The position numbers and the translations under genes are program-made. The notes under the pieces are model-generated. The model did not search any database. It was not told the DNA's origin and saw only the letters and a program-made list of their open reading frames with translations. Shown piece by piece: positions 291 to 59,409 of a stretch of 64,000 nucleotides of DNA. Source of the stretch: Williamsia faeni (GTDB lineage Bacteria; Actinomycetota; Actinomycetes; Mycobacteriales; Mycobacteriaceae); contig QJJF01000003.1 in NCBI GenBank assembly GCA_003202005.1, positions 372,001 to 436,000 of the forward strand, written 5' to 3'. Positions within the stretch are counted from its first letter, which is position 1; each line of letters starts with the position of its first letter.

Positions 291-361
291 GGCACACTCG
301 ACGGCTATGTCGGCACGCTCGACGGCGGTATGGGCACGCTCGACGGAGGCACGTTCGACGG
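291..361. repeat. 21-bp-period repeat array, locus A (4 units)
   Basis: Four copies of a 14-bp core close to GGCACGCTCGACGG begin at 291, 312, 333 and 348, with 7-nt variable spacers between the first three and 1 nt before the last. The array fills the gap between the convergent ligD fragment and the NUDIX gene, and its last unit stops 5 nt short of the NUDIX stop codon. The same core recurs near 15.8 kb and 59.2 kb. Confidence 0.85.
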
Positions 362-366
362 TCAGG

Positions 367-1179
367 TCAATTCAGGAATGTGCGTTCGATTCCGTAGGTG
401 TCTTCTTCGTCGAACACGATCCGAACGCGTTCGCCGGTCGACACCAGGGTGGGCATGATGGCTTCGATGTGGCGCTCGCGGGCGAGGGCGTGGTCGACAC
501 TGCCGGATTCGATCAGGTCATGTAGCTGTGCCCAGGTCGGGGGCAGGAGCAAGGTGTTTCCGGCTTCCCAGTCAGCGAGTACGGCCTGCGGTGTGGTCCA
601 GCCGCTCTCAGAGGCCTCGGTGGTCTCGCCGTCGGCTTCCTGGCCTTCCGGGAGAACCGCCAGGAAGAATCTCGTGTCGTAGCGGCGACGCTCGCCCAGG
701 GGGGTGATCCAGTGCGCCATCGGACGCAGCAGGTCGGCCCGCAACCGCAAGGTGTGGTCGCGGAGGAACTGCGCAAACGACAGCGACTTGTCGACCAGCG
801 CCGCACGCTCGGCGGTCAACACCGACGTGTCGGGAAACTTCCCGTCGGCATCGGCGGCCAGCAACACACCACATTCTTCGAACAGCTCCCGGACGACTGC
901 ACACACCAGCGCCTGGGCGGTTGCGGCATCGGTATGGAATTGCCCGGCCCACCAGTGCTCGTCCGGCCCTTCCCAGGCGAGATCGGCCTCGGCATCACGC
1001 GGGTCGACGCCGCCGCCCGGAAAGACGGTCACCCCGCCGGCGAAGTCCATGGCCTTCACCCGGCGCATCAGGAACACGTCGATCGGGGTCTCCGACTGCG
1101 AACTCTCACGGATCAGCACCACGGTCGCGGCGTCCCGGATCGGAACCGATTCGGGATTCTCGGCAAGTGTGAAGCTCAT
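367..1179 (-). CDS. NUDIX hydrolase, NUDT19/Rv3040c-like
   Basis: A 270-residue NUDIX hydrolase; family members cleave nucleoside diphosphates linked to another moiety, often CoA derivatives or nucleotide sugars, in the cytoplasm. The N-terminal strand RDAATVVLIRE and the segment TVFPGGGVDPRD (about residue 52) are followed by RELFEECGV near residue 100. About 35 residues separate the glycine part of the Nudix box from the REL.EE part, an interruption seen in the NUDT19/RP2p-like subgroup. The start overlaps the upstream ABC ATPase stop by 4 bp (ATGA), so translation is probably coupled. Gene order with the ABC ATPase, serB2 and ctaD is that of Rv3040c-Rv3043c. The substrate cannot be read from the sequence. 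Confidence 0.85.
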   Translation of the reverse strand: MSFTLAENPESVPIRDAATVVLIRESSQSETPIDVFLMRRVKAMDFAGGVTVFPGGGVDPRDAEADLAWEGPDEHWWAGQFHTDAATAQALVCAVVRELFEECGVLLAADADGKFPDTSVLTAERAALVDKSLSFAQFLRDHTLRLRADLLRPMAHWITPLGERRRYDTRFFLAVLPEGQEADGETTEASESGWTTPQAVLADWEAGNTLLLPPTWAQLHDLIESGSVDHALARERHIEAIMPTLVSTGERVRIVFDEEDTYGIERTFLN

Positions 1180-2027
1180 TCGGCTCTCCTTCTCCGGTGG
1201 CCACCGGCGCGGCGCGATCGACGGGCGAAGTACCGGCCACCGGCCTTGCTCAGCACGATCGACTGGCTGAACGCCTCCGACAGGTTCGCCGATGTCAGGA
1301 CGTCTTCCAATAGTCCTTGTGCGACCACCACGCCCTCCTTCAACAGCATCGCGTGAGTGAACCCGTTCGGGATCTCCTCCACATGGTGTGTCACGAGAAC
1401 GGTCGCGGGAGCGTCGGGGTCGGCGGCGAGCACCTCCAGACGCGCCACCAGTTCTTCACGAGCACCCAGATCCAGACCGGCCGCCGGTTCGTCGAGCAGC
1501 AGCAGTTCGGGATTGATCATCAGCGCCCGTGCCACGAGCACTCGCTTGCGCTCACCCTCGGACAGCGTGCCGAACGCCCGGTCCGCCAGATGCTCGGCGC
1601 CCATGGACTCGAGCATCTCCAGTGCCTGGTCGCGGTCGACCTGGTCGTAGACCTCTTTCCAGCGACCCAGGACCGCGTAACCTGCGGAGACCACCAGATC
1701 ACTGACCACCTCGTCGACCGGAATGCGATCGGCCAGCAGGGCCGACGTCACACCGATGCGTGCGGTCAGCTCGCGCACCTCGGTCCGCCCCACCGGCTCC
1801 CCCAGCAGAAAAGCGCTTCCGCTGCTCGGATGGGTTTCGGCGGAGGCCATCCGCAGCAGCGAGGTTTTGCCCGCCCCATTGGGTCCGAGGATCACCCACC
1901 GTTCGTCGAGTTCCACCTTCCAGGTGATGGGCCCGACGAGGTTGTTGCCCTCACGCCGCAGCGCCACATCTTCGAAGTCGATCAGCAGGTCTGGATCCGT
2001 TTCACGCACCCCCCTATCGTGCCGCAC
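1176..2027 (-). CDS. ABC transporter ATP-binding protein (Rv3041c-like)
   Basis: A 283-residue single-domain ABC ATPase. Walker A GPNGAGKTS lies near residue 48, the signature LSEGERKRV near 155, Walker B LLLLDEPAAGLD near 175, and the switch histidine in VLVTHHVEEI. The C-terminus is arginine-rich. No permease or binding protein adjoins it, so its partner is unknown; it resembles the YlmA/ModF-like stand-alone ATPases. ATG at 2027 is used; a GTG six codons in (VRETDP) is an equally good start. It is translationally coupled to the downstream NUDIX gene. Confidence 0.85.
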   Translation of the reverse strand: MRHDRGVRETDPDLLIDFEDVALRREGNNLVGPITWKVELDERWVILGPNGAGKTSLLRMASAETHPSSGSAFLLGEPVGRTEVRELTARIGVTSALLADRIPVDEVVSDLVVSAGYAVLGRWKEVYDQVDRDQALEMLESMGAEHLADRAFGTLSEGERKRVLVARALMINPELLLLDEPAAGLDLGAREELVARLEVLAADPDAPATVLVTHHVEEIPNGFTHAMLLKEGVVVAQGLLEDVLTSANLSEAFSQSIVLSKAGGRYFARRSRRAGGHRRRRAE

Positions 2028-2079
2028 GCCGACCGCTCACACGGCGCCCACGGAGGAGTGTCGGGAATCGAACCCGAAA

Positions 2080-2544
2080 TCAGTTGGGACCGGAACCGGG
2101 TTCGACCATCGCGAAATCGGCAAAATCGAAGCCGGGCACAACAATACAGCTGACCAGCGAGGCTTCATCCCCGTGCGGGGACGCACGCTGCCATTCACCC
2201 GGTGCCACCACGTACTGCGGCTGCTGACCGGCGAGCACATCCGAGCCGACGTACACGGTGCGCTCGCGGGTCGGCCCGCTGCCCTGACCGCCGAGTCCCA
2301 AGGCCACCGGGGCGCCGCGGTGATGCAGCCAGATCTCGGATCCGCGCACGGTATGCCACGCCGATTGTTGTCCGGGCATGAGCAGGAACAGGATCGCGGT
2401 GCCACCGGACCGATCGGCGGGATAGCCCTGCGGTAGCACTGATTTCGGGATGGTCAGATCACTGATCCAGGTCTGACGGTAGAACCCGCCCTCCGGGTGA
2501 GGCTCCAACTCCAGGTTCACGGCCCAATCCGGAAGCTCTGTCAT
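2080..2544 (-). CDS. Cupin-fold protein, DUF985 (cupin_5) family
   Basis: A 154-residue single-domain protein. The opening LELEPHPEGGFYRQTW, the SAWHTVRGSEIWLHHRG strand pair and the late AVAPGEW-like segment (YVVAPGEWQRA) are typical of the DUF985 cupin family. That family folds as a small beta-barrel; some members bind nucleotide-like ligands and the general function is unsettled. It sits in the same direction between the ABC ATPase and the PTH2-like gene, 32 bp from the latter, and is absent from the equivalent M. tuberculosis block as I recall it. Confidence 0.8.
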   Translation of the reverse strand: MTELPDWAVNLELEPHPEGGFYRQTWISDLTIPKSVLPQGYPADRSGGTAILFLLMPGQQSAWHTVRGSEIWLHHRGAPVALGLGGQGSGPTRERTVYVGSDVLAGQQPQYVVAPGEWQRASPHGDEASLVSCIVVPGFDFADFAMVEPGSGPN

Positions 2545-2576
2545 GGATCGAGACTAATCACCGGGGCACATTCCCG

Positions 2577-3392
2577 TCAGAACGTGCTGATCACCGTCAC
2601 CGAACCCGGTGCGATCTCGGTGAACCCGGCATCGCGGACGGCGACCGCCGTACCCGCCGCATCAGCGGACAGCAGTTGTTCCCACCGGGATTCGGCCGAT
2701 GTCCGAACGCGAACCGGGCATCGGTCAGCGAACCATTGTGCGGCCCGGTCCTGGTCCATGAGTTTGACCGCGAGCATCGACGCATGGCCGACCTGCGCCG
2801 CCAGCTTCCCGACCGACATCTCCAGGGTCGGGTTCACCCATAGCGTCGGACGGATCGCGGACGCGGTGCCATCGACAACGGCTGTGTCATCGGCACCGCT
2901 GTCGTCGGTACCGAGGTCGCCGACCTCGGTGCCACCGATCTGCAGGCGAGCGATCCGGCGATCGGTATGCCCCACCGGACCCGGCACTATCGCCCGGGCC
3001 TGCGCGGCCCCGTGGACGGCCGTGACCCCTGGAACGTCCTGGGCCGCTTCCCAATGCGCACCGCGGGCTCGTCGGGCGATCTTCCGGATCCTGGCGTCAC
3101 ACCAGTTGTCCATCTCGGTCGCCCACGGCCCATCCGGTCCACTGCGCTCATCAAGGCAGAGCAGAGCCACCGCCGATGCGGCTGCGGTGAGCAGTTCGGT
3201 CCGGTTCACCGGCTCCGATTTCGGGATGTGCAACACCATCTGCATGGCCAGCACCTGACCGGGATCGTCCGGATCACTGTGTCCGCCAACGTATTCGACC
3301 AGTCTCCGATAGCGTTTCCCGAACGCGTCTGTGTTCTCGAAATTATCGGGGCGCTCGGCAACGTCAGGACTCTCCTCCTGCCCGGGTTCCAT
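2577..3392 (-). CDS. PTH2-type peptidyl-tRNA hydrolase domain protein with N-terminal extension
   Basis: A 271-residue protein. The C-terminal ~100 residues look like a PTH2 (Bit1-type) peptidyl-tRNA hydrolase domain: LWVNPTLEMSVGKLAAQVGH with the conserved GK.AAQ..HA motif, then a late beta strand containing PVRVRTSAES and the end AGFTEIAPGSVTVI. The first ~170 residues are not the usual PTH2 and hold an acidic linker (GTDDSGADDTAVVD). If active it would release peptides from prematurely dissociated peptidyl-tRNA. Bacteria normally rely on Pth1, so this would be an accessory enzyme. The serB stop is 2 bp upstream of the ATG, so the genes are cotranscribed. Confidence 0.7.
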   Translation of the reverse strand: MEPGQEESPDVAERPDNFENTDAFGKRYRRLVEYVGGHSDPDDPGQVLAMQMVLHIPKSEPVNRTELLTAAASAVALLCLDERSGPDGPWATEMDNWCDARIRKIARRARGAHWEAAQDVPGVTAVHGAAQARAIVPGPVGHTDRRIARLQIGGTEVGDLGTDDSGADDTAVVDGTASAIRPTLWVNPTLEMSVGKLAAQVGHASMLAVKLMDQDRAAQWFADRCPVRVRTSAESRWEQLLSADAAGTAVAVRDAGFTEIAPGSVTVISTF

Positions 3393-3394
3393 CG

Positions 3395-6425
<3,031 letters not shown>

Positions 6426-6536
6426 GGATCCTCCTACCTGCAAAGGTCGACCGCGATGTCACACAGATCTTGATCAGTGACCGCGGCGTAAGAGCTCGGC
6501 ACGATTCTTGGATCTGATCGTAAACCCAAAAGACCA

Positions 6537-6586
6537 CTGAAGCCGGTCATCTCCTACAAACTGTCGTAGGAGATGACCGGCTTCAG
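6537..6586. terminator. 21-bp perfect hairpin between the two ctaD genes
   Basis: Arms 6537-6557 and 6566-6586 are perfect complements with an 8-nt loop. On the minus strand it lies just after the copy B stop (6603) and is followed by a short T stretch, so it can terminate copy B transcripts. The loop and upper stem contain the operator-like sequence shared with the region upstream of copy B, so it may also be a regulatory site for copy A. Confidence 0.65.
6551..6568 (-). promoter_or_regulatory. Operator-like site upstream of ctaD copy A
   Basis: The 18-mer CTCCTACAAACTGTCGTA (plus-strand reading) matches 17 of 18 bases of the site at 8515-8532. It ends 143 bp from the ctaD copy A start. The motif TCGTAAACCC at 6518-6527, read on the minus strand as GGGTTTACGA, supplies a possible TACGAT -10 box at the same spacing in both copies. 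Confidence 0.45.
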
Positions 6587-6602
6587 AGGTGTAAAACCCA
6601 GG

Positions 6603-8384
6603 TCAGATCGGATCCGGGTCGGTGGACGACTCGTGGCTGCCGACCGTCAGCGGATCGCGTCGCGCCTTTTCGGCGTGGTCACTGCTGCTCCCGTGTCCGG
6701 GTCCGACATGTGCTTCGTCGCGCATGCGATCGATCATGTGCGGGTAGTGCAGTTCGAACGCGGGCCGCTCCGAGCGGATCCGGGGAAGCTCGGTGAAGTT
6801 GTGCCGCGGCGGCGGGCAACTGGTGGCCCATTCGAGCGAGTTGCCGAAGCCCCACGGGTCGTCGACGGTGACGACCTCGCCGTAGCGGTAGCTACGGAAG
6901 ACGTTCCACAGGAACGGCAGGGTCGAGGCACCGAGGATGAACGCACCCACGGTCGAGACCACGTTGAGCGTGGTGAACCCGTCCGTCGGGAGGTAGTCGG
7001 CGTAGCGGCGCGGCATGCCCTCGTTGCCCAGCCAGTGCTGGACGAGGAAGGTCGTGTGGAAGCCGATCATGGTCAACCAGAAGTGGATCTTGCCCAAACG
7101 CTCATCGAGCATGCGTCCGGTCATCTTCGGGAACCAGAAGTAGATGCCGGCGTAGGTGGCGAACACGATGGTGCCGAACAGCACGTAGTGGAAGTGCGCA
7201 ACCACGAAGTAGCTGTCCGAGAGATGGAAGTCCAGGGGCGGGCTGGCGAGCAGCACACCGGTCAGACCACCGAACAGGAACGTGATGATGAAGCCGACCG
7301 AGAACAGCATCGGCGTCTCAAAGGTCATGTGACCCTTCCACATCGTGCCGATCCAGTTGAAGAACTTCACACCGGTTGGCACCGCGATGAGGAATGTCAT
7401 GAAGGAGAAGAACGGCAACAGCACGGCGCCGGTGGCGTACATGTGATGCGCCCACACCGCGACCGACAGCGCAGCGATCGACAGTGTGGCGTAGATCAGG
7501 CCGCTGTAGCCGAAGATCGGTTTACGGCTGAAGACCGGGAAGACCTCCGAGACGATGCCGAAGAACGGCAGCGCGATGATGTACACCTCGGGGTGACCGA
7601 AGAACCAGAACAGGTGCTGCCAGAGGAGGACACCGCCGTTGGCCGGGTCGTAGAGGTTGGCACCGAACTGGCGATCGACCTCGAGGCCCATCAGTGCGGC
7701 GGTCAGCAGCGGGAACGCCAGCAGGATGAGGACGCTGGTGACCAGGATGTTCCAGGTGAAGATCGGCATCCGGAACATGGTCATGCCGGGCGCCCGGAGG
7801 CAGACGACGGTGGTGATCATGTTGACCGCACCGAGGATGGTGCCCAGACCGGACACGCCGAGTCCCAGGATCCAGAGGTCGGCGCCGGCGCCCGGTGAAT
7901 GCACCGCGTCGGTCAGTGGGGTGTAGGCCGTCCAACCGAAGTCAGCGGCACCACCGGGGGTGATGAAGCCGAGCAGCGCCACGCTCGAGCCGAAGAGGAA
8001 CAGCCAGAAGCTGAAGGCGTTCAGACGCGGGAACGCGACGTCGGGAGCACCGATCTGCAGCGGCAGGACGACGTTGGCAAAGCCGATCACGATCGGGGTC
8101 GCGTACATCAGGAGCATCACGGTGCCGTGCATCGTGAACAACTGGTTGAACTGCTCGGTCGACAAGAACTGCAAGCCGGGTGCGGCGAGCTCGCTTCGCA
8201 TCAGCAGGGCCATCAGGCCACCGATGAGGAAGAACGCGAAACACACAACCAAGTACATGATGCCGAGCATCTTGTGATCAGTTGTCGTCAGCATCTTGTA
8301 GATGAACGACCCCTTGGGCCCCGTGCGCTCGGGGTAAGGCCTAACCGGAGCCACCTGCGTGGTGGGCTGGTCTACCGCGGTCAC
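6603..8384 (-). CDS. ctaD: Cytochrome c oxidase subunit I, copy B (aa3-type)
   Basis: A 593-residue second copy of the aa3 oxidase subunit I, in tandem with copy A. It has all the same core motifs ([30 protein letters not shown]) and the same translation signal, AGGAGG followed by a GTG start at 8384. The C-terminal tail differs from copy A (a [10 protein letters not shown] stretch replaces GHVSEKAEN). The upstream neighbour is a divergent FecB-like lipoprotein, as in Rv3043c/Rv3044, which suggests copy B holds the ancestral position relative to fecB while copy A holds it relative to serB2. The duplication includes part of the promoter. Confidence 0.95.
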
Positions 8385-8514
8385 TGATCCTCCTACCTGC
8401 GTGGCCACTCCGGTCCGTCGCGGCGAAAAAGCTTCCGCTCACGACATGAGGGCACGGCGATGAATGTGCGCTGAGGAGAATCGTAAACCCTCCCCCGCGA
8501 CGGGACCGCGCGGG

Positions 8515-8532
8515 CTCCTACGAACTGTCGTA
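8515..8532 (-). promoter_or_regulatory. Operator-like inverted repeat upstream of ctaD copy B
   Basis: The element contains the inverted repeat TACGA-ACTG-TCGTA at 8519-8532. Its right-hand neighbour on the minus strand, GGGTTTACGA (8490-8481), contains a TACGAT -10 candidate, so the inverted repeat would sit just upstream of the -35 region. Position (about 148 bp before the ctaD start) and sequence match the site in front of copy A. It lies in the 254-bp divergent region shared with the FecB-like gene. Confidence 0.45.
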
Positions 8533-8638
8533 TTTCGATGCGGTGTGCCCGATCCGGCGCGCCGAGGGGAACCTCGATCGTTTCGCACAGTGCTAGTTTG
8601 GTCGGGAATTCGACCATCTGGAAGACATCACCGAAAGA

Positions 8639-9622
8639 GTGGCAGTGAGCGATGTGATCCGCCGTCCGCGCGGCATGGCGGTGTTGGCATTGGCAGCGCT
8701 CGTCAGCGTCGGTGCGACAGCGTGTATCGATTCGTCGGTCCCCGGTGGCGAGGGTTCGGTCGCCCGGACGACATCACGTATTGCCGCGGTCGATCTGGTC
8801 AACCCTGATCGGGATGCCAACACGACATGTCAGCCGACGGCAGCGCTCGATCCCGGCGCACCGGATCCGCAGCGCATCCTGGTCGCCGATCCGAGCCTGC
8901 TCGACGCATTGTGTGCGCTCGGGCTGCAGGGCCGCGTGGTCGCCACGACCACCATCGACGGCACAACTCCGACCTATATGGGTGACGCGGTGCACTCGCT
9001 GCCCACCATCGGCGATGTCGCGGCGCCGGATCCGGCCAAGGCCGTCGCATCCGATCCCGATCTCGTCCTGACTGTCGGGAACTCCCCCGTCACCGACGCC
9101 CTCGCCGATGTTCCGGACGCCACCGTCGATCCCGCTGCGGATTGGAAACAGCGGTTTGTCGCCGTCGCAGCCGCGGTCGGCCGGACCGGGGCCGGAGACC
9201 AACGCCTGCAGGGATACCTCGACGCGGCCAAGGCACTCGGTGTCCGGGTGGGCGCGCGATATACACAGGCATCGCTGGTGCAATTCACCGCAGATTCCAC
9301 GATTGTGATGGGTACCGACGCGTTTGCCGCCCGGGTACTCACCGACGTCGGTGCGCAGCGCCCCCCGGGTCAGCGTGAGCCCGAACCGACGGTGCTCGAT
9401 GACAAGAACTTCGAGATCGCCGACGGTGATGTCATCTACGCCGGCTTCGACGGCGAAGAAGGTCAGGACTACGGCACCTCGATCCTGAAGACCGACCGCT
9501 GGCTCGACATGGGCGCGCCGAGCTGGGGCCGCACGTGGTTGGTCGAGGACGAGGTCTGGTTCGGCAGCGGCGGACTGTCTGCTGCCAACATCGTTCTCCT
9601 CAACCTCCGCACCACCCTCTGA
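8639..9622 (+). CDS. fecB: FecB-like periplasmic-binding lipoprotein (Rv3044-like)
   Basis: A 327-residue substrate-binding protein of the iron-siderophore/vitamin B12 (FecB/BtuF) fold. A signal peptide (about residues 13-29) ends in a lipobox-like VSVGATAC, so the mature protein is probably lipid-anchored outside the membrane. Class III features include RILVADPSLLDALCALGL, IGDVAAPDPAKAVASDPDLVL and the late DVIYAGFDGEEG. The GTG at 8639 is used; a second GTG two codons on is possible. There is no permease nearby. Location divergent from ctaD is conserved with M. tuberculosis. The ligand (ferric siderophore or heme) is inferred from the family only. Confidence 0.8.
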   Translation: MAVSDVIRRPRGMAVLALAALVSVGATACIDSSVPGGEGSVARTTSRIAAVDLVNPDRDANTTCQPTAALDPGAPDPQRILVADPSLLDALCALGLQGRVVATTTIDGTTPTYMGDAVHSLPTIGDVAAPDPAKAVASDPDLVLTVGNSPVTDALADVPDATVDPAADWKQRFVAVAAAVGRTGAGDQRLQGYLDAAKALGVRVGARYTQASLVQFTADSTIVMGTDAFAARVLTDVGAQRPPGQREPEPTVLDDKNFEIADGDVIYAGFDGEEGQDYGTSILKTDRWLDMGAPSWGRTWLVEDEVWFGSGGLSAANIVLLNLRTTL

Positions 9623-9654
9623 CGAACCAGTTCACGCTGGTCAGAAGTGGTGTG

Positions 9655-9681
9655 AGGTTTCGATCATGGTGACCGAAACCT
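9655..9681 (+). terminator. Short hairpin after fecB
   Basis: Arms AGGTTTCG (9655-9662) and CGAAACCT (9674-9681) form an 8-bp stem with an 11-nt loop, followed by TTG. It lies between the fecB stop and the carbonic anhydrase start. Confidence 0.4.
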
Positions 9682-15806: not shown

Positions 15807-15946
15807 GGCCCACTCGACGGAAACGAGGGCACGCTCGGCGGTGATTTCGGCACGCTCGACGGTGGACCCCCACCGAGCGGGCCGATCCGACCGTCGAGCC
15901 GGCCGATCCGACCGCCGAGCGGGCAGAAATCGCCGTCGAGTGGGCA
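15807..15946. repeat. 21-bp-period repeat array, locus B (3 forward and 4 inverted units)
   Basis: Forward cores start at 15807, 15828 and 15849; inverted cores (CCGTCGAGCG-type) start at 15870, 15891, 15912 and 15933. All starts are exactly 21 bp apart, so phase is kept through the inversion. Two inverted units share the spacer GATCCGA. The array fills the gap between the nrdF terminator and the DUF427 start. Confidence 0.85.
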
Positions 15947-15956
15947 GAAAAAACAA

Positions 15957-15984
15957 CATCCGCACCGAAGTATCGGTGCGGATG
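15957..15984 (-). terminator. Rho-independent terminator of the nrdHIEF operon
   Basis: A perfect 12-bp stem (15957-15968 with 15973-15984, loop AGTA) is followed on the minus strand by TTGTTTTTT. It lies 24 bp after the nrdF stop. Confidence 0.9.
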
Positions 15985-16007
15985 CTGTTTGGCATGCAGG
16001 TCTGAGG

Positions 16008-17051
<1,044 letters not shown>

Positions 17052-49789: not shown

Positions 49790-49796
49790 CCGACCG

Positions 49797-50123: not shown

Positions 50124-50481
50124 CGACAACCCTCCTCATCAATTCAGTTCCTAGCGCGTGGGCTGTACGCGCTCAAAAGCGGGCATGCCATCCGATCAGG
50201 TTGACGTCGGCTGCCCGCTTGTCGCCTTCCAGTATCCGGGTCACCGATGTCAAGTCAAAACCGACCCCACCCGTGGTCCGCGAGGCGGCGGGCCGCGCAT
50301 TGCGCACACTTCGCCGCCATACGCGGGTTTCAAATCAGTGAGCGCGTAAATCTTTACCGGAACCGGCCCGGAAGGCACTGTTGTCAACGTGACCTTGCGC
50401 CGAAATCTCCCGTGGAACCGAATGTGTTGTTGCTGATCGCAACCCTCAACTCATTCGAACCTTCCACAGGAGCCTCCCCGC
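50124..50481. other. 358-bp gap between fdxC and the cysteine dioxygenase gene
   Basis: No gene is supported here. A partial inverted repeat (AAGCGGGCA near 50175 with TGCCCGCTT near 50211) sits about 50 bp from the fdxC start and could belong to its leader. The rest should hold the two divergent promoters. The cysteine dioxygenase start is preceded by CAGGAGCC. Confidence 0.4.
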
Positions 50482-51024: not shown

Positions 51025-51410
51025 GTTCTGTGACCACCATCGACGACCTTCTCCTGCAGGCCCGGGCCGGACTCGATCGGATCAGCGCACCGGAACTCCC
51101 GACCGCACTCGCCGACGGCGCACTGGTCGTCGACATCCGCCCGGCGGCGCAGCGCGCACAGGAAGGCGAGTTCGACGGCGCACTTGTGATCGAACGCAAC
51201 GTCCTCGAATGGCGCCTCGACCCGGCTTCCGACGCACGGATCCCCGAGGCCGTCGACCACGACGTCCCGTGGGTGGTGATCTGCTCGCAGGGCTACACCT
51301 CGAGCCTGGCGGCGGCGTCGCTGCAACTACTCGGACTGCACCGCGCCACCGACGTGATCGGCGGCTACGAGGCACTCATCGCCGCCGGTATCAGCGGCAC
51401 CTCACGCTGA
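51021..51410 (+). CDS. Rhodanese-domain protein coupled to cysteine dioxygenase
   Basis: A 129-residue single rhodanese domain. GALVVDIRPAAQRAQEGEFDGA leads to the active-site loop VVICSQGYTSSLAAASL with the catalytic Cys in CSQGYTS. It overlaps cdo by 4 bp. Cysteine dioxygenase followed by rhodanese is a recurrent pair; a role in sulfane-sulfur handling during cysteine breakdown is probable. Confidence 0.88.
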   Translation: MSSVTTIDDLLLQARAGLDRISAPELPTALADGALVVDIRPAAQRAQEGEFDGALVIERNVLEWRLDPASDARIPEAVDHDVPWVVICSQGYTSSLAAASLQLLGLHRATDVIGGYEALIAAGISGTSR

Positions 51411-51431
51411 TCCGGCCGCTCGACTACGACG

Positions 51432-52202
51432 TCAAACAATTTCGCGGACAACAGCATTCGATGCCCGTCGCAGCGCGTCGCTCTCACCGATGTACCCGGC
51501 GAGCGCACCGACCAGCGGCAACCCGGTCAGCAGCCGCCACGGCTGCTTCGATGACGGCCGCCGCTCGAGCTCACCGAGAGCCGCCCGCGACTTCTCGATA
51601 CCGGACCACAGGTCCTTCACCCGGGCGTCGTTTTCCTTATCGCTGCGGTCGTCTGCCTCACCCGTCAGCAGCGCCCGCGAGTTCATCTTCCGGCGGCACA
51701 GGACCTCGGCGAGCAGGTCGGTCTGCCGGTACCGGTCGTCGATGCCGTAGGCGCGCGCGACCGCACACAGCAGAATCGCCTGGTTCCCGAATCCCAGCGC
51801 GGTCTGGACGGGCAGCCGCTTCACCAGCGGTCCGAAGACACCCGGGTACGCAACGCCGACGGTCGTGATGGCACCGACCCGATTGATCCACCAGTCACGA
51901 CGCTGTGCCGGCGTCCAGCCGGTCCACCGCGCGGTGCCGGGCAATCCGGCGGCGTCGGCGGCCCACACGAACGAGGCGCCGACGGTGCCGATGACCTTGG
52001 CGATGAGGGCCTCGTCAGCCCTGTCAGCATCATCAACACTGCCGGGCTGCTGATCCGCACCCCGAAATGTCCTGCTTTTTACACCGAACAGGTCACTGTC
52101 GGCCGCAGCGAGCAGCAGACCGATCACCCCGGTCGACCGATGGAGCAGACGCGCAACGTCGGTGTCCGAGAGCGGTTGTGCGGTCGGCAGAGGCAACTTC
52201 AT
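51432..52202 (-). CDS. Uncharacterised protein downstream of cofG
   Basis: A 256-residue protein I do not recognise with confidence. It begins [19 protein letters not shown] and has a hydrophobic patch [17 protein letters not shown] plus [20 protein letters not shown] at the end, a pattern reminiscent of membrane-associated EcsC-like proteins but too weak to name. The ATG at 52202 overlaps the stop of the upstream CofG gene by 4 bp (ATGA), so they are translated together. It occupies the place where the CofH half of FbiC would be expected. Confidence 0.6.
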
Positions 52203-53602
52203 GCAGTATGCAGACCTGCGTCGACGGGTTCCCACTCCTCGCCCGCTTCGCTCCAGGGACGCCCGATGGGGATGACGTCGGCGGCCAGCCCGGTCTCGGG
52301 ATCGGCCAGCGCCCACACGTGCTCGCTGATCCGCTCGTCGATCCACGGGGAGCCGGCCAAAACGTATCGGGGTTGTGCCGCAACACGTTCGGTCAGGATG
52401 TACCCGGTCTCGGCGGTGATGGCGGCCAGCGAATCCAGATGCGGCCAGGGCCGTTCGGGATTCACGTGGTCGGGCGTCAGCGGCGACACACCACCCCAGT
52501 CGTCCACACCGGCACCGACCAGTGCGGCACATTCGGCCGACGACACCAGGTTCGGAGGGGCCTGGATCCGCATCCGCGGGCCCAGGATGATCCTGGCCAC
52601 CGCCACGGCTGCCAGGAACTCGTCGAACTCGGCATCGGCGACACCGCGCATCGCGGTATCGGGCTTGGCCCGGAAGTTCTGCACGATCACTTCCTGGATG
52701 TTGCCGAACGCCTTCTGCACCTTGTGCAGCTCGATCAGCGAGTCGGCGCGTTCGGTGAGGTCCTCACCGATGCCCACCAGGATTCCGGTGGTGAACGGCA
52801 CAGAGAGCCGGCCCGCGTCGATGAGGACCTGCATGCGGACCTCGGGGTCCTTGTCGGGGCTGCCGTAGTGGGCGTTGCCCTTGTCGGTGAAGAGCCGTCG
52901 CGCGGTGGTCTCGAGCATCATGCCCATCGACGGCGCAACCGGCTTGAGCCGGGCCATCTCGTCGGCACTCATCACCCCGGGATTGAGGTGAGGCAGCAAC
53001 CCCGTCTCCTCGAGAACCCGGATCGAGGCTGCCCGGACATAGTCCAGCGTCGAGGAATAGCCCCGCTCGGTCAGCCATTGCCGCGCCTCGGGCCACCGCT
53101 CCTCCGGACGGTCACCGAGCGTGAACAAGGCCTCCTTGCATCCCATCTCGGCGCCGCTGCGAGCGATGTCGAGGACTTCCTCGATCTCCAGGTACATTCC
53201 GTGGCCGTCGCGGGCCAGCTTGCCCGGAACGGTCACGAACGTGCAGTAATGGCACCGATCGCGGCACAGCCGGGTCAGGGGGATGAACACCTTGCGCGAG
53301 TAGCTGATCTGCCGCTCGCGACCTTCGGCGATCAAACCGGCATCACGGATCCCCGCCGCGATCGCGCAGAGTTCGGTGAGTTCGTCCCCGCGCGCGGCGA
53401 GCAGCGTCGCGGCCCGGGCGACATCGAGCTCGGCGCCCTCGTCCACCTGGGCCAGTACCTGCCTGATCGCATCGCTGGTGGGGCGCACCTGCGCCATGCC
53501 ACCGGAACGCGGCGGCATCGCCGGATCAGGGAGCAGCGTCGGATCCGATGACGTACCGAGGGCTTCGGGGATCTGCGAGGTCACTCCCTGATAATGCTGC
53601 AT
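52199..53602 (-). CDS. cofG: CofG-like radical SAM enzyme (FbiC N-terminal half only)
   Basis: A 467-residue radical SAM protein matching the N-terminal part of FbiC, which couples tyrosine and a ribityl-diaminouracil to give FO for F420. The cluster motif [10 protein letters not shown] is present, then [27 protein letters not shown] before it, and [21 protein letters not shown]. Mycobacterial FbiC has ~860 residues with a CofH half; this ends at [11 protein letters not shown]. No CofH motif exists elsewhere in the window. Start ATG at 53602 is a choice; GTG at 53584 is possible. Confidence 0.85.
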
Positions 53603-53612
53603 GGGTGGCAGA

Positions 53613-54014
53613 TCATTCCCCCGACCCCGCCACCACCGGTTTCGCGTCACCCTTCGTATCGGGCAGCCAGCCCGCAAAAGCCGCGAACACCGGCAATATG
53701 AGTCCCAGGCCGAGGAGCAGGAACACGGTCAGATCCTGCGGCACCACCACGTCGCCGCCGGGCCCACCCACGGCCAGAACGAAGAACGCGATCATGAACG
53801 CGATCAGCGAACCGAAGCGGGCGAACCCTTCGGTGAGGGTGGCGCTGCACCACAGCAGGATGTAGTTGGCGATCGCCGCGAACACCGCGCTGATCGGGAA
53901 CGGCACCGACCCGATGTGCAACGGCAGAAATGCCAAGGCCATGACGCCGACCAGGAAGCCGTCGAGCCACAGCAGGCCCAGCAGCGCCCAGCGCATCAAA
54001 GATCCTGTCATCAC
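53613..54014 (-). CDS. Small membrane protein between mshB and cofG (Rv1171-like)
   Basis: A 133-residue protein with about four transmembrane helices ([69 protein letters not shown]). Function unknown. It overlaps mshB by 4 bp at its start and is 10 bp from cofG's start. Conserved next to mshB in mycobacteria (Rv1171). Confidence 0.8.
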
Positions 54015-54883
54015 AGGCCACCGAAGAGGTCGGTTTCACGTCCGGACCCGTCTGTCGGTCCCTGCTCACCGGCGACCAGCATGAAGTGTTCCTCGGCAAA
54101 AATCGGCTGGATGATGTTGTTGGACAGCGCATATTCGGTGCCCGACGCGGACACGGTCACCTGCGTTGCGTGTGCGCTCAGCGCCCGCACCTTGCGATCG
54201 TAGACCTCACGCACGTCGATCGCCGTGGTGATCTCGGCATCGGGATGGCTGGGCAGCTCGCCCGGCGTCGGCAACCGCCATCCCTTCGGGATCCGGCCGC
54301 TCGCCTCGGCGAGACCGGCCTCCAGTGCAGATTCTTCGGTGACGGTCCAGTAGAGCTTGGACACCGACCATCCGTCGTCCCCGGTGGCCGCGAGTTCGAT
54401 GGCCGCGTGAGCGATGGCATGGACCTGGATGTGGTCCGGATGTCCATAGCTGCCCACGGGGTCGTATCCGACCACGACCTGCGGTCGCAGTTCGCGGATC
54501 AGATCCGCGAGGACTGCGGCGGGGGTCTCTGATCCGGCGGCGATGAATGCGCGTTCGTGATGGTTCGAGGGCGCACCCTGCATCCCCGAATCCCGCCAGC
54601 GTCCGGCACCACCGAGGAACCTTGGTTCCACGGGGGCAAATGGATCGGGACTCAGCTCGGCCAGCGCATCGGTCAATTCCATGATCCGGTAGCCACCCAA
54701 TTGGTCGCCGCCGCCGGCGGCGACCAGGCCACTCCACCGGTCCCCGATCACCTCACCCTCCTCACCCAGCGTGCAGGTGACAACGGTGACCTCGGCGCCG
54801 GCATCGAGGTACTTGGCGATGGTGCCGCCGGTGGTGATGGTCTCGTCATCCGGATGGGCATGAACGAGCAACAGACGATTCAT
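54011..54883 (-). CDS. mshB: Mycothiol biosynthesis deacetylase MshB
   Basis: A 290-residue zinc deacetylase that removes acetyl from GlcNAc-inositol in mycothiol synthesis. Zinc motif LLVHAHPDDETITTGG and the later HPDHIQVHA histidine are in place, with TCTLGEEGEVIGDRW. The start is ATG at 54883. It is operon-linked to lpqW 18 bp upstream, as Rv1170-Rv1166 but closer. Confidence 0.94.
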   Translation of the reverse strand: MNRLLLVHAHPDDETITTGGTIAKYLDAGAEVTVVTCTLGEEGEVIGDRWSGLVAAGGGDQLGGYRIMELTDALAELSPDPFAPVEPRFLGGAGRWRDSGMQGAPSNHHERAFIAAGSETPAAVLADLIRELRPQVVVGYDPVGSYGHPDHIQVHAIAHAAIELAATGDDGWSVSKLYWTVTEESALEAGLAEASGRIPKGWRLPTPGELPSHPDAEITTAIDVREVYDRKVRALSAHATQVTVSASGTEYALSNNIIQPIFAEEHFMLVAGEQGPTDGSGRETDLFGGL

Positions 54884-54901
54884 GGGATTGCGGGTTCGCT
54901 T

Positions 54902-56869
54902 TCAGTTACCGGTCTGCTGGCGCCAGACCGCGGAGTCACCGTAGATGCCGGTCTGCACCGGCCCGGTGACCGGGACGCCGGTGACCAAGGGAGAGACGGC
55001 GGTGGTCAGGACATCCTGATACACCGGCAGATACACCGAACGATCATCGAGCAGGCGCTGCGCGGTGCGCAGATCCTCGGTCGGATCCTCCGCGGAGATG
55101 GCCCGGGTCGCGATCTGCTGTAGTTCCGGGTCGCACAGGCCGGAGACATTGCTGGTGTACCGCGGTTCGCTGCGCTCCGCCGAATCGGCCTCCGACGACG
55201 GAACCTCCGATGAGGTGACCGACGGTTCCGGTGCTGCGCTGGTCGCCGTGGCTGCAGCGGACGGGTCCGGGACAGAGCTCGACGCGGCGGTCTCTTCTTC
55301 GGTGCGCAGACATTCGGTGTTCGACGCGAGCACTGTGGCAGGTGATTCCCCGGCCCGGCTCCAGCCGACCACCAGATCGACCTGTCGTCCGGTCAGTGCC
55401 GAGCTGTACAACTCGGCAGTCGACATGGCCACATTCGTGGCGCGGATCCCGGCACGATTCAACTGGTCGACGATGTTGGCCGCCGCCGGACCCGTCCGAA
55501 GATCGCCCTTGACCGACCCGACCCGGACCACCAAGGCGTCACCGTCCGTTTTTTCGACGGGCGCTGTGCCGGCGGGAAGCGGCGGAAGGTCGCTCGGCGG
55601 GGTCGTTGACGTCTCATTGGTGGTGCTCGTCGGGGTCGACGGCGCGGCGCTGGTGCTCGGTTCCCCGGACGCGGTCGGCGGTTCGAGTGCCGGAGTCACC
55701 GGGCCACGCTGATATCCCGCTGCCGTCAGCCAGCCTTCGACCTGCTCGGGGGTGACGACGGGCCGCAGCACCGGGTAATAGCCGGGATCGGACGGTGCGT
55801 AGACGGAGTTGCTGTCCGGGAGGACCTCGGTGTCGTCGGCACCGGCGAACGTCACGAGGTTGGTGTCGAGGGTTGCCAGCACCGCACGCCGCAGATCGAT
55901 GTTCGACATCGACTCCGTACGGGTGTTGACCGTGATGCCCAAGGTCCGCGACTGCGCGACCTTGCCGGTCAGGACTCCACCGATGCTGCCCAGTGTCGCG
56001 CCGAGTGCATCACCGCCACTGACCGATACGACCCGGGTGTCGCCGGAGCGCATCGAATCCGCGAGTTGGCTGGTGGTGCCTGCGCGTCGCAGGGTCATCC
56101 GGTCGACACCGGCCGGCGTGAGCCAGAACCGGTCATTGCGGATCAGCCGGACCTCGTCGCGGCTGTGATCGATACCGCTGATGGTGTAGGGGCCACCGGA
56201 GGCCGGGTAGCCGCTGTCCATACCGGACTGGAAACCGCCGGGGGCGCCTTTGAGGACGTGGGAGGGCAGCAGGTCGTCGAACAGTTCCCGCCACGCCGGG
56301 TAGGGCGCCGCGAAGGTCGCCGTCACTTCCTTGCCGCCGGCGGAACTGCGTACGTCGGTGATCATGCGATAGCCCGCGGGCGCGGTCACGTTGGGTTGCC
56401 GCGACATCTGCTGCCATAGGTAGATGAAATCCTCGGCGGTGATCGGCAATCCGTCCGACCACTGCGCATCGTCATCGATCTTGTAGGTGACCGCGAACGG
56501 TTCGGTGCCGGTGACCTCGGCGCTGGTCAGCAGCGCCTGGTCCATCAGCCACACGACCCGGCCGTCGACGTTCACCGGGCGAAACGAACTCGGCAACGTC
56601 ATCGCCGCCACCGCGGTGGTGACGGCCGACTGATCAGCGGCCAGGTGCGGATTGAACCCGTTGCCGATCGAATCGGTGGCGACGTACAGCACGCGGCCCG
56701 ACGGTTCTGTCGGCTCCGGCGGGACCGAGTTCGTCTGCTGCACCGGCGGCGGAGGATCGGCGACGCATGCGCTCGAGAGCAGCAGGCAGGACAGCGCGAT
56801 CGCGGCCATCGCAGTCGCGGTCGTCCGTCGTCTACCCAAAACCCGATTCCCCTGTCCGCCGGTCGACAT
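54902..56869 (-). CDS. lpqW: LpqW-like lipoprotein (peptide-binding fold)
   Basis: A 655-residue extracytoplasmic protein of the family 5 (oligopeptide-binding) type. Signal peptide and lipobox LLSSAC near residue 33. LpqW controls the split between PIM and lipoarabinomannan synthesis in mycobacteria rather than import. Two Ser/Thr/Pro-rich inserts (around residues 385-430 and 535-575) look like extended linkers. Start ATG at 56869; the in-frame TTG at 56875 falls in a hairpin. Confidence 0.85.
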   Translation of the reverse strand: MSTGGQGNRVLGRRRTTATAMAAIALSCLLLSSACVADPPPPVQQTNSVPPEPTEPSGRVLYVATDSIGNGFNPHLAADQSAVTTAVAAMTLPSSFRPVNVDGRVVWLMDQALLTSAEVTGTEPFAVTYKIDDDAQWSDGLPITAEDFIYLWQQMSRQPNVTAPAGYRMITDVRSSAGGKEVTATFAAPYPAWRELFDDLLPSHVLKGAPGGFQSGMDSGYPASGGPYTISGIDHSRDEVRLIRNDRFWLTPAGVDRMTLRRAGTTSQLADSMRSGDTRVVSVSGGDALGATLGSIGGVLTGKVAQSRTLGITVNTRTESMSNIDLRRAVLATLDTNLVTFAGADDTEVLPDSNSVYAPSDPGYYPVLRPVVTPEQVEGWLTAAGYQRGPVTPALEPPTASGEPSTSAAPSTPTSTTNETSTTPPSDLPPLPAGTAPVEKTDGDALVVRVGSVKGDLRTGPAAANIVDQLNRAGIRATNVAMSTAELYSSALTGRQVDLVVGWSRAGESPATVLASNTECLRTEEETAASSSVPDPSAAATATSAAPEPSVTSSEVPSSEADSAERSEPRYTSNVSGLCDPELQQIATRAISAEDPTEDLRTAQRLLDDRSVYLPVYQDVLTTAVSPLVTGVPVTGPVQTGIYGDSAVWRQQTGN

Positions 56870-56872
56870 CAG

Positions 56873-56903
56873 CAATCGGCGGTCGGTACTCGACCGCCGA
56901 TTG
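56873..56903 (-). terminator. Hairpin between typA and lpqW
   Basis: CAATCGGCGGTC (56873-56884) pairs with GACCGCCGATTG (56892-56903), a perfect 12-bp stem and 7-nt loop in the short gap. It lies 16 bp after typA's stop and 4 bp before the lpqW start, so it may attenuate read-through or affect lpqW translation. There is no T run. Confidence 0.55.
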
Positions 56904-56919
56904 CGTCCTTTCTACCCAA

Positions 56920-58830
56920 TCAGCTCACGCTCTGGTTACGAGCCTTCGTGCGAGACCGCTCACGTGCACGGGTGTTGGAGTCGAGGTTGACCTTGCGCAC
57001 CCGGACCACCTGGGGGGTGACCTCGACGCACTCGTCGTCGGTACAGAACTCCATCGCGGCTTCGAGTTCGAGCTTGATGGGCTTGGCCAGGGTCTCCATC
57101 ACGTCGGCGGAGGACTGACGCATGTTGGTCAGCTTCTTCTCCTTGGTGACGTTGATGTCGAGGTCTTCCATCCGCGGGTTGATACCCACGACCATGCCCT
57201 CGTAGGTGTCGGCGCCCGGCTCGACGAAGAACGTTCCGCGGTCGGCGAGCTGGATCATCGCGAACGGGGTGACCGATCCGGCGCGGTCGGAGACCAGCGA
57301 ACCGGTGTGGCGGGCACGGATCTCGCCGGCCCACGGGCCGTAGCCGTCGAACACGGCGTTGGCGATACCGGTACCGCGGGTCTCGGTGAGGAAGTCGGTG
57401 CGGAAACCGATCAGGCCACGCGAGGGAACGATGAACTCCATCCGAACCCAGCCACTGCCATGGTTGGCCATGTCGCCCATGCGGCCCTTGCGGGCAGCGA
57501 GCAGCTGCGTGACGGCACCGAGGTACTCCTCGGGGACGTCGATGGTGAGGTGCTCGAACGGCTCGTGCAGCTTGCCGTCGACCTGCTTGGTGACAACCTG
57601 CGGCTTGCCGACGGTCAGCTCGAAGCCTTCGCGACGCATCTGCTCGACGAGGATGGCCAGGGCCAGCTCGCCACGTCCCTGGACCTCCCAGGCGTCCGGA
57701 CGACCGATGTCGAGGACGCGCAGGGAGACGTTGCCGATCAGTTCGCTGTCGAGGCGGTCCTTGACCATGCGCGAGGTGAGCTTGTGGCCCTTCACGCGAC
57801 CGACCAGCGGCGAGGTGTTGGTGCCGATCGTCACCGAGATGGCGGGCTCGTCGACGGTGATCCGCGGCAGTGCGACAGGGTGGTCGACGTCGGTGAGGGT
57901 GTCACCGATCATGATGTCCGGCATACCGGCCACGGCGACGATGTCGCCGGCGACGGCGACCTCGGCGGGGGTCCGGGCAACGCCGACGGTGACCAGAAGT
58001 TCGGTGATCTTGGCGCGCTCGGTGACGGGCTCGCCGTTGACCTCCCGCAACCAGGCCACGGTCTGACCCTTCTTCAGGGTGCCGGCGTACAGGCGGACCA
58101 GCGCGAGGCGGCCGAGGAATGCCGAGGCGTCGAGGTTGGTGACGTGCGCCTGCAGGGGCGCGTCGAGATCACCCTTGGGAGCGGGCACGTACGACAGCAG
58201 CACGTCGAACAGGGCGTCGAGGTTCTCGGCATCGGGAACCTGACCGTTTTCGGGTGCGACGGTGCTGGCGACACCCGCGCGACCCGAGGCGTAGAGGACC
58301 GGCAGATCGAGCGCGAGCTCGGCAGCGGCGGCGGCCTCGTCGTCGACATCAGAGGCGAGATCGAGGAGCAGGTCGTGGCTCTCTTCGACGACCTCGGCGA
58401 TGCGGGCGTCGGGACGGTCGGTCTTGTTGACCACGAGGATCACGGGCAGCGAGGCGGCCAGGGCCTTGCGCAGCACGAAGCGCGTCTGCGGCAGCGGACC
58501 TTCCGAGGCGTCGACCAGCAGCACAACGCCATCGACCATCGACAGGCCGCGCTCGACCTCACCACCGAAGTCGGCGTGGCCGGGGGTGTCGATCACGTTG
58601 ATGACGACCTCGGTGCCGTCGGGCTGACGACGGTGCACCGCGGTGTTCTTCGCGAGAATGGTGATGCCCTTCTCGCGCTCGAGGTCGCCGGAGTCCATGA
58701 CGCGGTCGACCAGTTCGGCGCGTTCCTCGAAGACGCCCGATTGCCGCAGCATCGCATCAACCAGGGTTGTTTTCCCGTGGTCGACGTGCGCAACGATCGC
58801 AACGTTGCGGAAATTGGGGGCAGCAGTCAC
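56920..58830 (-). CDS. typA: Translational GTPase TypA/BipA
   Basis: A 636-residue ribosome-binding GTPase. G1 [16 protein letters not shown]3 [12 protein letters not shown] and G4 [10 protein letters not shown] at the N-terminus; domain III/V regions [19 protein letters not shown] and the C-terminal basic tail. The start GTG at 58830 follows GGAGAAC; the in-frame 33 bases before it have no family match. Matches Rv1165. Confidence 0.95.
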
Positions 58831-58948
58831 TGAAGTTCTCCGGACGTGAAGTGGGCATGTCAATACCGTCGAGCTAGTTGCTCAAACCAGTCAAGGGTAC
58901 TCTCTTGCGCAATGAGAGCGGCATCACAATGCCCCGCGAGCCCACAAT

Positions 58949-58967
58949 TAAGGTGCTGCTAACCTAA
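58949..58967. promoter_or_regulatory. IdeR/DtxR-like iron box upstream of the 60-residue protein gene
   Basis: TAAGGTGCTGCTAACCTAA matches TWAGGTWAGSCTWACCTWA at 16 of 19 positions, including all nine right-half bases. It lies 34 bp before the small gene's GTG and 118 bp before the divergent typA start. Spacing suits repression of the small gene by iron-loaded IdeR. Confidence 0.55.
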
Positions 58968-59001
58968 CTTTCATCAAGACGGTCCTTGGAAAGGTGGGTA
59001 C

Positions 59002-59184
59002 GTGGGCAAGAAAAATGTGGCGGACATCTGCGAGATGAAGCCCAAGAAGAAGTGCTGCCGCAGTTCCACCCGTTGCCTCCGGTGCCCCGTCGTCATCCAC
59101 AAGATGCAGAAATTCTCCGCACAGGGGATGTCGAACAAAGAGCTCACCAAAGCCCTCAGAAAGGTGCGCGCCCGCGCCGCCTGA
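59002..59184 (+). CDS. 60-residue cysteine-rich conserved-looking small protein
   Basis: A 60-residue basic protein not tied to any family I can name. The first third is MGKKNVADICEMKPKKK, followed by CCRSSTRCLRCPVV: six cysteines in the N-terminal 28 residues, five of them within 11 positions, then a helix-forming tail GMSNKELTKALRKVRA. The start GTG at 59002 has GGAAAGGTGG upstream. The cysteines suggest a metal site. A possible IdeR box lies upstream; the gene is convergent with mutT2 across a repeat array. Confidence 0.75.
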   Translation: MGKKNVADICEMKPKKKCCRSSTRCLRCPVVIHKMQKFSAQGMSNKELTKALRKVRARAA

Positions 59185-59208
59185 CCCGTCCCCACCACCC
59201 CACCACCA

Positions 59209-59409
59209 CCGCCGACCGTGCCAATCGAACCGTCGAGCGTGCTCAAATGTCCCTCGACCGTGCCGAAGCCGCATGCGGCGAATGCACAAGGGCCCGCTCG
59301 GCGGTAGTGAGAGCACGCTCGGCGGACACGAAGGCACGCTCGGCGGACACGAAGGCACGCTCGGCGGACACGAAGGCACGCTCGACGGTCACGAGGGCAC
59401 GCTCGACGG
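59209..59409. repeat. 21-bp-period repeat array, locus C (3 inverted and 6 forward units)
   Basis: Inverted cores start at 59209, 59230 and 59251. After a central palindrome GCCGCATGCGGC (59268-59279), six forward cores start at 59291, 59312, 59333, 59354, 59375 and 59396. Spacing is 21 bp throughout each half; three spacers read ACACGAA. The last core stops 5 nt before the mutT2 stop codon, as at locus A. Confidence 0.9.

What the first reader, a model, noticed from the sequence alone, without database searches (positions are those of the whole stretch)
291..59409. Dispersed family of 14-bp cores on a strict 21-bp period at three intergenic sites
Arrays at 291-361, 15807-15946 and 59209-59409 together hold about 20 copies of a core near GGCACGCTCGACGG, nearly all exactly 21 bp apart, with 7-nt spacers that vary except where recently copied. 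None lies in a coding gene. 21 bp is two helical turns, so a protein could bind one face; it is also seven codons, but no array is read as protein here. I know of no named element with this layout. Alternatives are slipped-strand expansion of a terminator or a nucleoid-associated protein site.
Basis: seen in the sequence. Interest (0 to 1): 0.75.

Follow-up and report, generated by a model that had tools for sequence, protein, structure and literature searches.

The report
Helix-phased DNA repeats between facing genes
A bacterial genome of the Williamsia group carries dozens of arrays of a 14-base DNA word repeated every 21 bases, placed mostly right after the stop codons of genes that face each other, and their spacing suggests that an unknown protein binds them on one face of the double helix, probably as a boundary between the two genes.

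Summary
The window's three arrays hold 20 units and belong to a genome-wide family: 407 phased core pairs against 0 for the reversed control. In 2.43 of 5.52 Mb I found 45 arrays: 31 between convergent genes, 12 co-directional, 1 divergent, 1 at a contig edge. Among genomes sampled, arrays were seen only in Williamsia, Gordonia and one more genus of the family.

The canonical element is two arms of 21-bp units diverging from a 26-bp dyad centre. Core and centre are conserved as sequence, but neither arms nor centre covary, so hairpin pairing is not what is kept. Inter-arm spacing falls in classes about 10.5 bp apart. This points to a protein on double-stranded DNA. Convergent ends with an array lack intrinsic terminators (1/52 against 90/538). 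In some Gordonia the units sit in frame inside genes, with the nucleotide core kept.

Best reading: a helix-phased, protein-bound boundary element at convergent 3' ends, gained and lost over time. Protein and function are inferred. Main rival: a selfish repeat amplifying in 21-bp steps.

The parts
291..361 (+). Site 1, single-arm array: + cores at 291, 312, 333, 348 (last step 15 bp), between a + gene ending near 275 and a - gene whose stop codon is at 367-369
   Evidence: by eye nearly empty (4 or about 14 bp between stops) in 6 of 8 other genomes of the genus, an array in 2
367..1179 (-). flanking gene of site 1 (NUDIX-domain protein, 270 aa), its 3' end facing the array
15807..15946 (.). 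Site 2, head-to-head array: 3 + cores (15807, 15828, 15849) then 4 - cores (15870, 15891, 15912, 15933), all 21 bp apart
15950..15991 (-). ordinary intrinsic-terminator-like hairpin between the ribonucleotide reductase gene and array 2; not part of the repeat family (boundaries approximate)
   Evidence: read by eye in the sequence
16008..17006 (-). flanking gene of site 2: ribonucleotide reductase small chain
   Evidence: PF00268
59209..59264 (-). Site 3, left arm: 3 - cores (59209, 59230, 59251), 24 bp after the stop of the + gene 59002-59184
59265..59290 (.). Site 3, 26-bp centre (start-to-start gap 40)
   Evidence: holds GCCGCATGCGGC; fits the family centre only in part
59291..59409 (+). 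Site 3, right arm: 6 + cores at 21-bp steps, three with identical 7-nt spacers
59415..59804 (-). flanking gene of site 3 (NUDIX), stop codon 5 bp from the array

Best explanation
A dispersed DNA element of Williamsia and Gordonia chromosomes. Its unit is a 14-bp core (consensus GGCMCGSTCGRCGG) plus a 7-bp variable spacer, so successive cores lie on the same face of the helix. In its complete form (seen in the window's genus) two arms of units diverge from a 26-bp dyad centre (consensus about RAAANTGCTNGCGCGCNAGCANTTTY). SHOWN: the layout, conservation of core and centre as sequence without pairing covariation, helical spacing of the two arms, placement close behind stop codons with a preferred polarity, scarcity of intrinsic terminators there, presence/absence turnover, copy change in 21-bp steps. 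INFERRED: an unidentified sequence-specific protein, probably dimeric at the centre, covers the element on one face; the complex acts as a two-sided boundary between convergent genes, by stopping or buffering the two converging RNA polymerases and their supercoils. Cores are kept by that recognition; new units arise by slippage or recombination in 21-bp steps.
For: 31 of 44 classifiable arrays are in convergent gaps against 350 of 2099 gaps overall (p 4e-15), and 1 of 44 in divergent gaps (p 0.003). At convergent ends with an array 1 of 52 has an intrinsic terminator within 120 nt, against 90 of 538 without (Fisher p 0.002); 0 of 41 where the array starts within 20 nt. Polarity: the unit next to a 3' end reads CCG... 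in the sense direction in 5 of 5 single-arm arrays with one close 3' end, in 7 of 9 two-arm arrays with one, and at both ends in 18 of 20 two-arm arrays with two. In the first 1.24 Mb, cores of different arms agree at 11.83/14, spacers at 2.76/7; left and right units of one element agree no better than shuffled (11.87 against 12.02; 22 elements). The centre is conserved by position (24 centres of gap 40, a few of them duplicates) while self-complementarity is below shuffled (6.12 against 6.80). Inter-arm gaps over 51 distinct centres: 18-20 (7), 30 (3), 39-41 (33), 50-51 (4), 60-61 (2), 81, 93; best period 10.4-10.5 bp. With stricter cores 55 of 56 gaps fall in residues 18-20 or 8-9 modulo 21. 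In coding arrays of Gordonia the nucleotide core is kept.
Against: No binding protein was found. In some Gordonia the units lie in frame inside lysX, a FAD-oxidase gene and azlC, where a transcription block should hurt. 11 of 45 arrays have one arm. Orthologous gaps are often empty, so the element is not needed there. The gap classes 19/40/61 and 30/51/93 differ by whole 21-bp units, so the independent evidence is two classes modulo 21, about 10.5 bp apart, and some inner units are weak matches. Off-phase cases exist: same-arm steps of 7, 14 (2), 23, 24 (3), 45 in G000 and 18, 20, 22 (4), 88 elsewhere; L285 (21), L273 (32), L274 (21) and L280 (42, weak core). 4 of 29 informative two-arm arrays go against the polarity. 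Site 2 is head-to-head and sits behind an ordinary terminator. The terminator comparison is confounded because an array fills the scanned stretch.
Confidence: 0.45

Rival explanations
1. Selfish or mutational amplifier: a non-autonomous repeat that spreads by units or arrays and expands in 21-bp steps, tolerated where it does least harm (between stop codons, or in frame in loops and tails of proteins). The core is kept because the copying machinery recognises it.
For: Apparent gain at site 1 in G005, where three similar genomes (G002, G003, G008) have 4 bp between the stops (by eye); in-frame presence in three Gordonia gene families, with lysX copies of 0, 1, 2, 4 and 10 units; patchy presence across Gordonia.
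Against: No long matches between loci in 2.43 Mb of G000 (longest 41 bp, inside repeats), so no sign of recent jumping there; no target-site duplication seen by eye; no match of one array in the phage and plasmid collections, and only two viral contigs with one pair each; preferred polarity and helical inter-arm spacing are not predicted.
Confidence: 0.3
2. Bidirectional RNA-hairpin terminator expanded by slippage: the two arms pair in the transcript and stop RNA polymerase from both genes.
For: The 22 two-arm arrays folded are all more stable than shuffled sequence (z -2.3 to -16.8); location and scarcity of other terminators.
Against: The nine single-arm arrays folded have sense-strand z from -2.3 to +2.2, five of them positive; no arm-to-arm covariation; centre not self-complementary beyond its consensus; hairpins do not need 10.5-bp spacing.
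Confidence: 0.12
3. DNA gyrase sites analogous to E. coli BIME-2, relieving positive supercoils between convergent genes.
For: Convergent location; phased symmetric layout. The BIME-gyrase link is recalled; I saw only a search listing on it.
Against: A strict 14-bp core is more specificity than I recall for gyrase; gyrase is universal whereas arrays were seen in a few genera only.
Confidence: 0.1
4. Coding heptad repeat (T-V/A-E/D-R-A-x-x), translated by read-through or in pseudogenes.
For: That frame has 0 stops in 307 distinct pooled units, against 8.7 expected from column shuffles; coding in some Gordonia genes.
Against: Three of the other five frames are also below all or nearly all shuffles in the pooled set; the arm frame relative to the upstream stop is random, 19/15/14; in the called genes of 2.43 Mb of G000 only low-scoring small ORFs over arrays carry the motifs; in coding copies the Arg codons are all CGT.
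Confidence: 0.03

Closest known systems
REP / BIME repeats (GTAG- and CGTC-tagged; PMC3733652, passages read)
   Same: Short dispersed repeats, mostly intergenic, downstream of genes and between convergent or unidirectional ORFs, often in opposite orientation; some also inside genes
   Different: REP units are palindromes that fold; here the unit is a non-palindromic 14-bp core in direct 21-bp arrays, with no covariation and a separate dyad centre
Rickettsia palindromic elements, RPE (passages in PMC10969869; PMC3733652)
   Same: Repeat that sits in frame inside unrelated protein-coding genes
   Different: RPEs are described as palindromic elements of about 150 bp; here single-arm 21-bp units change copy number stepwise, and in the window's genome the arrays are intergenic
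PARCEL coding repeats (PMC2996958, abstract read)
   Same: Tandem repeats with dyad features, spread across genomes
   Different: PARCELs encode a 25-residue protein repeat; here nucleotides are conserved and the copies in the window's genome are non-coding
DNA uptake sequences in inverted pairs at gene ends (recalled; search listing only)
   Same: Short conserved word, paired at gene ends
   Different: No clear excess of lone copies here; copies are in phased arrays

Membership tests
REP/BIME | Unit is a palindrome/hairpin of 20-40 bp | tested here: not met
   Single-arm arrays do not fold clearly better than shuffled (z -2.3 to +2.2); the core is not a palindrome
REP/BIME | GTAG or CGTC tag and associated RAYT transposase | not tested
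   No family search for RAYT was run; the last genome search was used for spacing
REP/BIME | Location between convergent/unidirectional genes | tested here: met
   31 conv, 12 co, 1 div of 44
RPE / MITE | Terminal inverted repeats and target-site duplication | tested here: inconclusive
   No duplication seen by eye at site 1; array ends look unconserved by eye
RPE / MITE | In-frame presence in genes | tested here: met
   Gordonia lysX, FAD-oxidase gene, azlC; not met in the 2.43 Mb of G000
Intrinsic terminator | Stable RNA stem kept by compensatory changes, then a U-run | tested here: not met
   No covariation; single arms not clearly folded
CRISPR array | Repeat of about 23-50 bp with unique spacers of similar length, and cas genes (definition recalled) | tested here: not met
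   14-bp core, 7-bp spacer, in tens of loci; cas genes not sought
DNA uptake sequence | Many lone copies genome-wide | tested here: not met
   98 lone matches against 97 expected at <=1 mismatch, 7 against 3 exact, in 2.43 Mb
Phased protein-binding array (iteron- or operator-like) | Sequence conservation with helical phasing | tested here: met
   with the exceptions listed
Phased protein-binding array (iteron- or operator-like) | A cognate binding protein | not testable with these tools
   none identified

The most novel reading that the evidence does not exclude
A previously undescribed class of bacterial chromosomal boundary element: a helically phased nucleoprotein array with a dyad nucleation centre, used at dozens of convergent gene pairs in place of intrinsic terminators, and able to seed and grow in 21-bp steps even inside protein-coding genes because 21 bp is both two helical turns and seven codons.
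Probability: 0.35. Interest if true: 0.85.

Novelty: new variant of a known kind. Interest (0 to 1): 0.68.

Why it matters
How bacteria with few intrinsic terminators separate tightly packed convergent genes is open, and in this genome only 90 of 538 convergent ends without an array showed one by my scan. A protein-bound, helix-phased boundary would be a new answer, testable by one pull-down. It also offers a case of a DNA word whose spacing suits both helix and codon, so that it can occur in non-coding and coding DNA. In the held open-access library, topic searches (ranked, capped lists) showed no description of it, and no paper held any of four core strings.

Tried and rejected
RNA family: Rfam had no match in the window at gathering scores. 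Coding: a stop-free heptad frame looked striking but failed the frame-to-stop test and was not unique against shuffles. Hairpin: strong folds of two-arm arrays were set aside after the covariation tests. Recent transposition in this genome: no long cross-locus matches. Uptake sequence: no clear excess of lone cores. Virus or plasmid carriage: no match of the site 3 right arm in phages and plasmids; two viral contigs with one pair each, not followed. A first genome pattern with the wrong spacing gave 0 and was corrected. The 'Kitasatospora' record with real arrays was explained as probably mislabelled. Wider pattern for arm junctions: 19 matches in 28 genomes; 17 places were fetched; several hold only a chance left half, and two off-phase junctions came from there (L273, L285).

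Rows dropped before counts: four 2-3-unit hits inside genes of G000; in spacing counts, loci L035, L044, L060, L064 and repeated identical centres; in the Arg-codon count, array units that do not fit the pattern [DEN][RC]A at 7-residue spacing.
Full report
OBSERVATION. The three arrays are as described, with 20 units in all. One step at site 1 is 15 bp. Site 2 is head-to-head (+++----) and site 3 is ---(26-bp centre)++++++. In the window the core with at most one mismatch occurs 12 times, 11 of them in the arrays, against 0.2 expected. Over the whole genome (5.52 Mb, 44 contigs) phased pairs occur 209 times forward and 198 reverse, and the reversed control pattern 0 times.

WHO HAS IT. In the window's genus 8 of 9 genomes have matches: 407, 62, 5, 33, 99, 63, 113, 87 and 0 pairs, with 0 for the control. 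An exact scan of named genomes gave 40 stretches: 32 of Williamsia, 3 of Gordonia rhizosphera, and 5 single loci elsewhere. Of these five, four lie in genomes with only 1 or 2 matches. The fifth, titled Kitasatospora arboriphila, has the same size and counts (5.7 Mb, 30/64) as G005 of the window's own genus, so its title is probably wrong. By the same matching of size and counts, W. soli and Williamsia sp. 1135 belong to the window's genus group and G. rhizosphera to g9. In the family 39 of 401 sampled genomes match: 8 in the own genus, 5 in g18 (which holds W. deligens and W. serinedens; one of the five has a single match), 21 in g9 (several with only 2 or 3 matches), 1 in g16, and 4 elsewhere with a single match each. 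In the class 22 of 394 match; apart from the window's genome none has more than two matches, and the control pattern itself matched once in two genomes.

ANATOMY. I read 2.43 Mb of the genome: contigs C1 (first 800 kb), C2 (770 kb) and C3 (456 kb), plus parts of others, chosen because one search showed hits there. After dropping four weak hits inside ordinary genes there are 45 arrays with 363 units; 34 have both orientations and 11 only one. The usual layout is left arm in - orientation, a centre, right arm in + orientation. Successive units of one arm are 21 bp apart in 257 of 271 steps of at most 110 bp, and in 252 of 259 in the other genomes' loci. Profile of 187 interior units from the first 1.24 Mb: 14 conserved positions and a variable 7-bp spacer. 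Cores from different arms agree at 11.83 of 14 positions, spacers at 2.76 of 7 (same 1.24 Mb).

PLACE. Gene calls are from my own codon-usage ORF caller. 31 arrays lie between convergent genes, 12 between co-directional genes, 1 between divergent genes, 1 at a contig edge; all gaps divide 350/1396/353. For convergent the binomial p is 4e-15. Of 60 stop-to-array distances, 41 are 20 bp or less. The unit next to a 3' end reads CCG...GCC in the sense direction in 5 of 5 single-arm arrays with one close 3' end, and at both ends in 18 of 20 two-arm arrays with two close 3' ends; the other two fail at both ends, and 2 of 9 two-arm arrays with one close 3' end fail. Intrinsic terminators within 120 nt: 90 of 538 convergent ends without an array, 1 of 52 with one, 0 of 41 ends within 20 nt of an array, 3 of 19 ends further from it, 60 of 1170 co-directional ends without an array (Fisher p 0.002 for the first two). 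Part of this contrast arises because the array itself occupies the stretch.

NOT A HAIRPIN, NOT CODING. Two-arm arrays fold strongly, as an inverted repeat must (22 arrays, z -2.3 to -16.8); nine single-arm arrays have sense-strand z from -2.3 to +2.2. Left and right units of one element match no better than units of shuffled elements (11.87 against 12.02 of 14; spacers 2.53 against 2.76 of 7; 22 elements). The 26-bp centre (24 with a gap of exactly 40, a few of them duplicates) has a symmetric consensus, yet its halves are less complementary within an element than between elements (6.12 against 6.80 of 13). So the sequences are kept by recognition, not by pairing. One reading frame has no stop in 307 pooled distinct units against 8.7 expected from column shuffles, but three of the other five frames are also well below their shuffles, and the frame relative to the upstream stop is random (19/15/14 of 48 arms).

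HELICAL SPACING. Start-to-start distances between the two arms over 51 distinct centres from many genomes are 18-20 (7), 30 (3), 39-41 (33), 50-51 (4), 60-61 (2), 81 and 93. Scanning periods from 6 to 20 bp, 10.4-10.5 bp fits best; for the 15 distinct genome-distance values outside 39-41, R is 0.94 and none of 5000 random sets reached it. These classes are linked by whole 21-bp units, so the independent content is two residue classes modulo 21 about 10.5 apart; some inner units counted there are weak matches. With stricter cores 47 of 56 lie at residues 18-20, 8 at 8-9 and 1 (L285) at 0. Further exceptions seen by eye are L273 (32), L274 (21) and L280 (42, weak core); off-phase same-arm steps (7, 14, 23, 24, 45) also occur.

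TURNOVER. At site 1 the same convergent pair is nearly gapless in six relatives and holds arrays of different sequence in G005 and G007 (by eye). At site 3 two relatives (G001, G006) carry another palindrome built on GCACACGTTCGA. At site 2 the eight relatives carry a long near-perfect hairpin behind the ribonucleotide reductase gene instead. Within the 2.43 Mb no array shares more than 41 bp with another, and the longest shared stretches listed are repeat sequence.

IN GENES ELSEWHERE. Of the 15 Gordonia stretches I fetched, 5 hold arrays in frame inside genes: lysX (GTVDGKL heptads), a FAD-oxidase/Fe-S gene in two genomes (PVDRASD) and azlC tails in two genomes; two more 2-unit hits inside genes (L225, L233) look like chance. 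In lysX, the stretch between two fixed anchors is 50 residues in 21 of the 30 genomes aligned, 57 in three, 64 in two, 78 in one, 120 in one, and 52 and 54 in one each; 57, 64, 78 and 120 correspond to 1, 2, 4 and 10 units. For the FAD-oxidase gene 41 of 59 genomes match: in G130, G201, G367 and G293 one match spans the array residues, in G351 they are partly covered, in 34 they are skipped, and in 2 only array-like stretches match. In the coding arrays of the last two gene families the Arg position is CGT in 19 of 21 heptads and TGT (Cys) in the other two; CGT makes up 14.4% of Arg codons in the called genes of the fetched Gordonia loci. So the DNA word is conserved and not only the peptide.

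INTERPRETATION. Shown: a lineage-specific, phased, oriented DNA element behind stop codons. Inferred: a protein that reads the core on one helical face and a boundary function between convergent genes. The in-gene copies are the strongest argument for a selfish component; a protein-bound element that also amplifies by slippage would satisfy both.

LITERATURE. Topic searches listed nothing on such arrays in Gordonia or Williamsia, but these are ranked lists cut at 20 or fewer; no held paper contains any of the four core strings searched. Many subscription papers are not held. For PMC3733652 and PMC10969869 I read passages, for PMC12306157 one passage (no mention of Gordonia or Williamsia in its main text), for PMC2996958 the abstract; others I saw only in listings.

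Noticed in passing
L065 (NZ_JNYV01000008.1): Record titled Kitasatospora arboriphila NRRL B-24581 matches G005, a genome of the window's genus, in size and counts; the title is probably wrong.
   Followed up: partly
L132-L139, downstream of the ribonucleotide reductase small-chain gene: A different long near-perfect palindrome (GAATTCGCGCCACCTACGACGAAACGCGCC...), with what look like compensatory changes between species, follows this gene in the eight relatives; possibly another dispersed terminator family (by eye).
   Followed up: no
L150 and L157, downstream of the NUDIX gene: At the place of site 3 two relatives carry a palindrome of GCACACGTTCGA units with 7-bp spacers (19-bp step), resembling the present core with two bases added (by eye).
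   Followed up: no
L031, L037, L045, L052, L056, L070 (W. deligens and W. serinedens): In this clade many spacers begin with GATC and many cores start with T or C, a dialect of the family.
   Followed up: no
G256 (Gordonia group g9, 3.9 Mb): Small array-rich genome with 189 phased pairs; one of four fetched arrays (L221 2311-2387) lies exactly stop-to-stop between convergent genes, the others less closely.
   Followed up: partly
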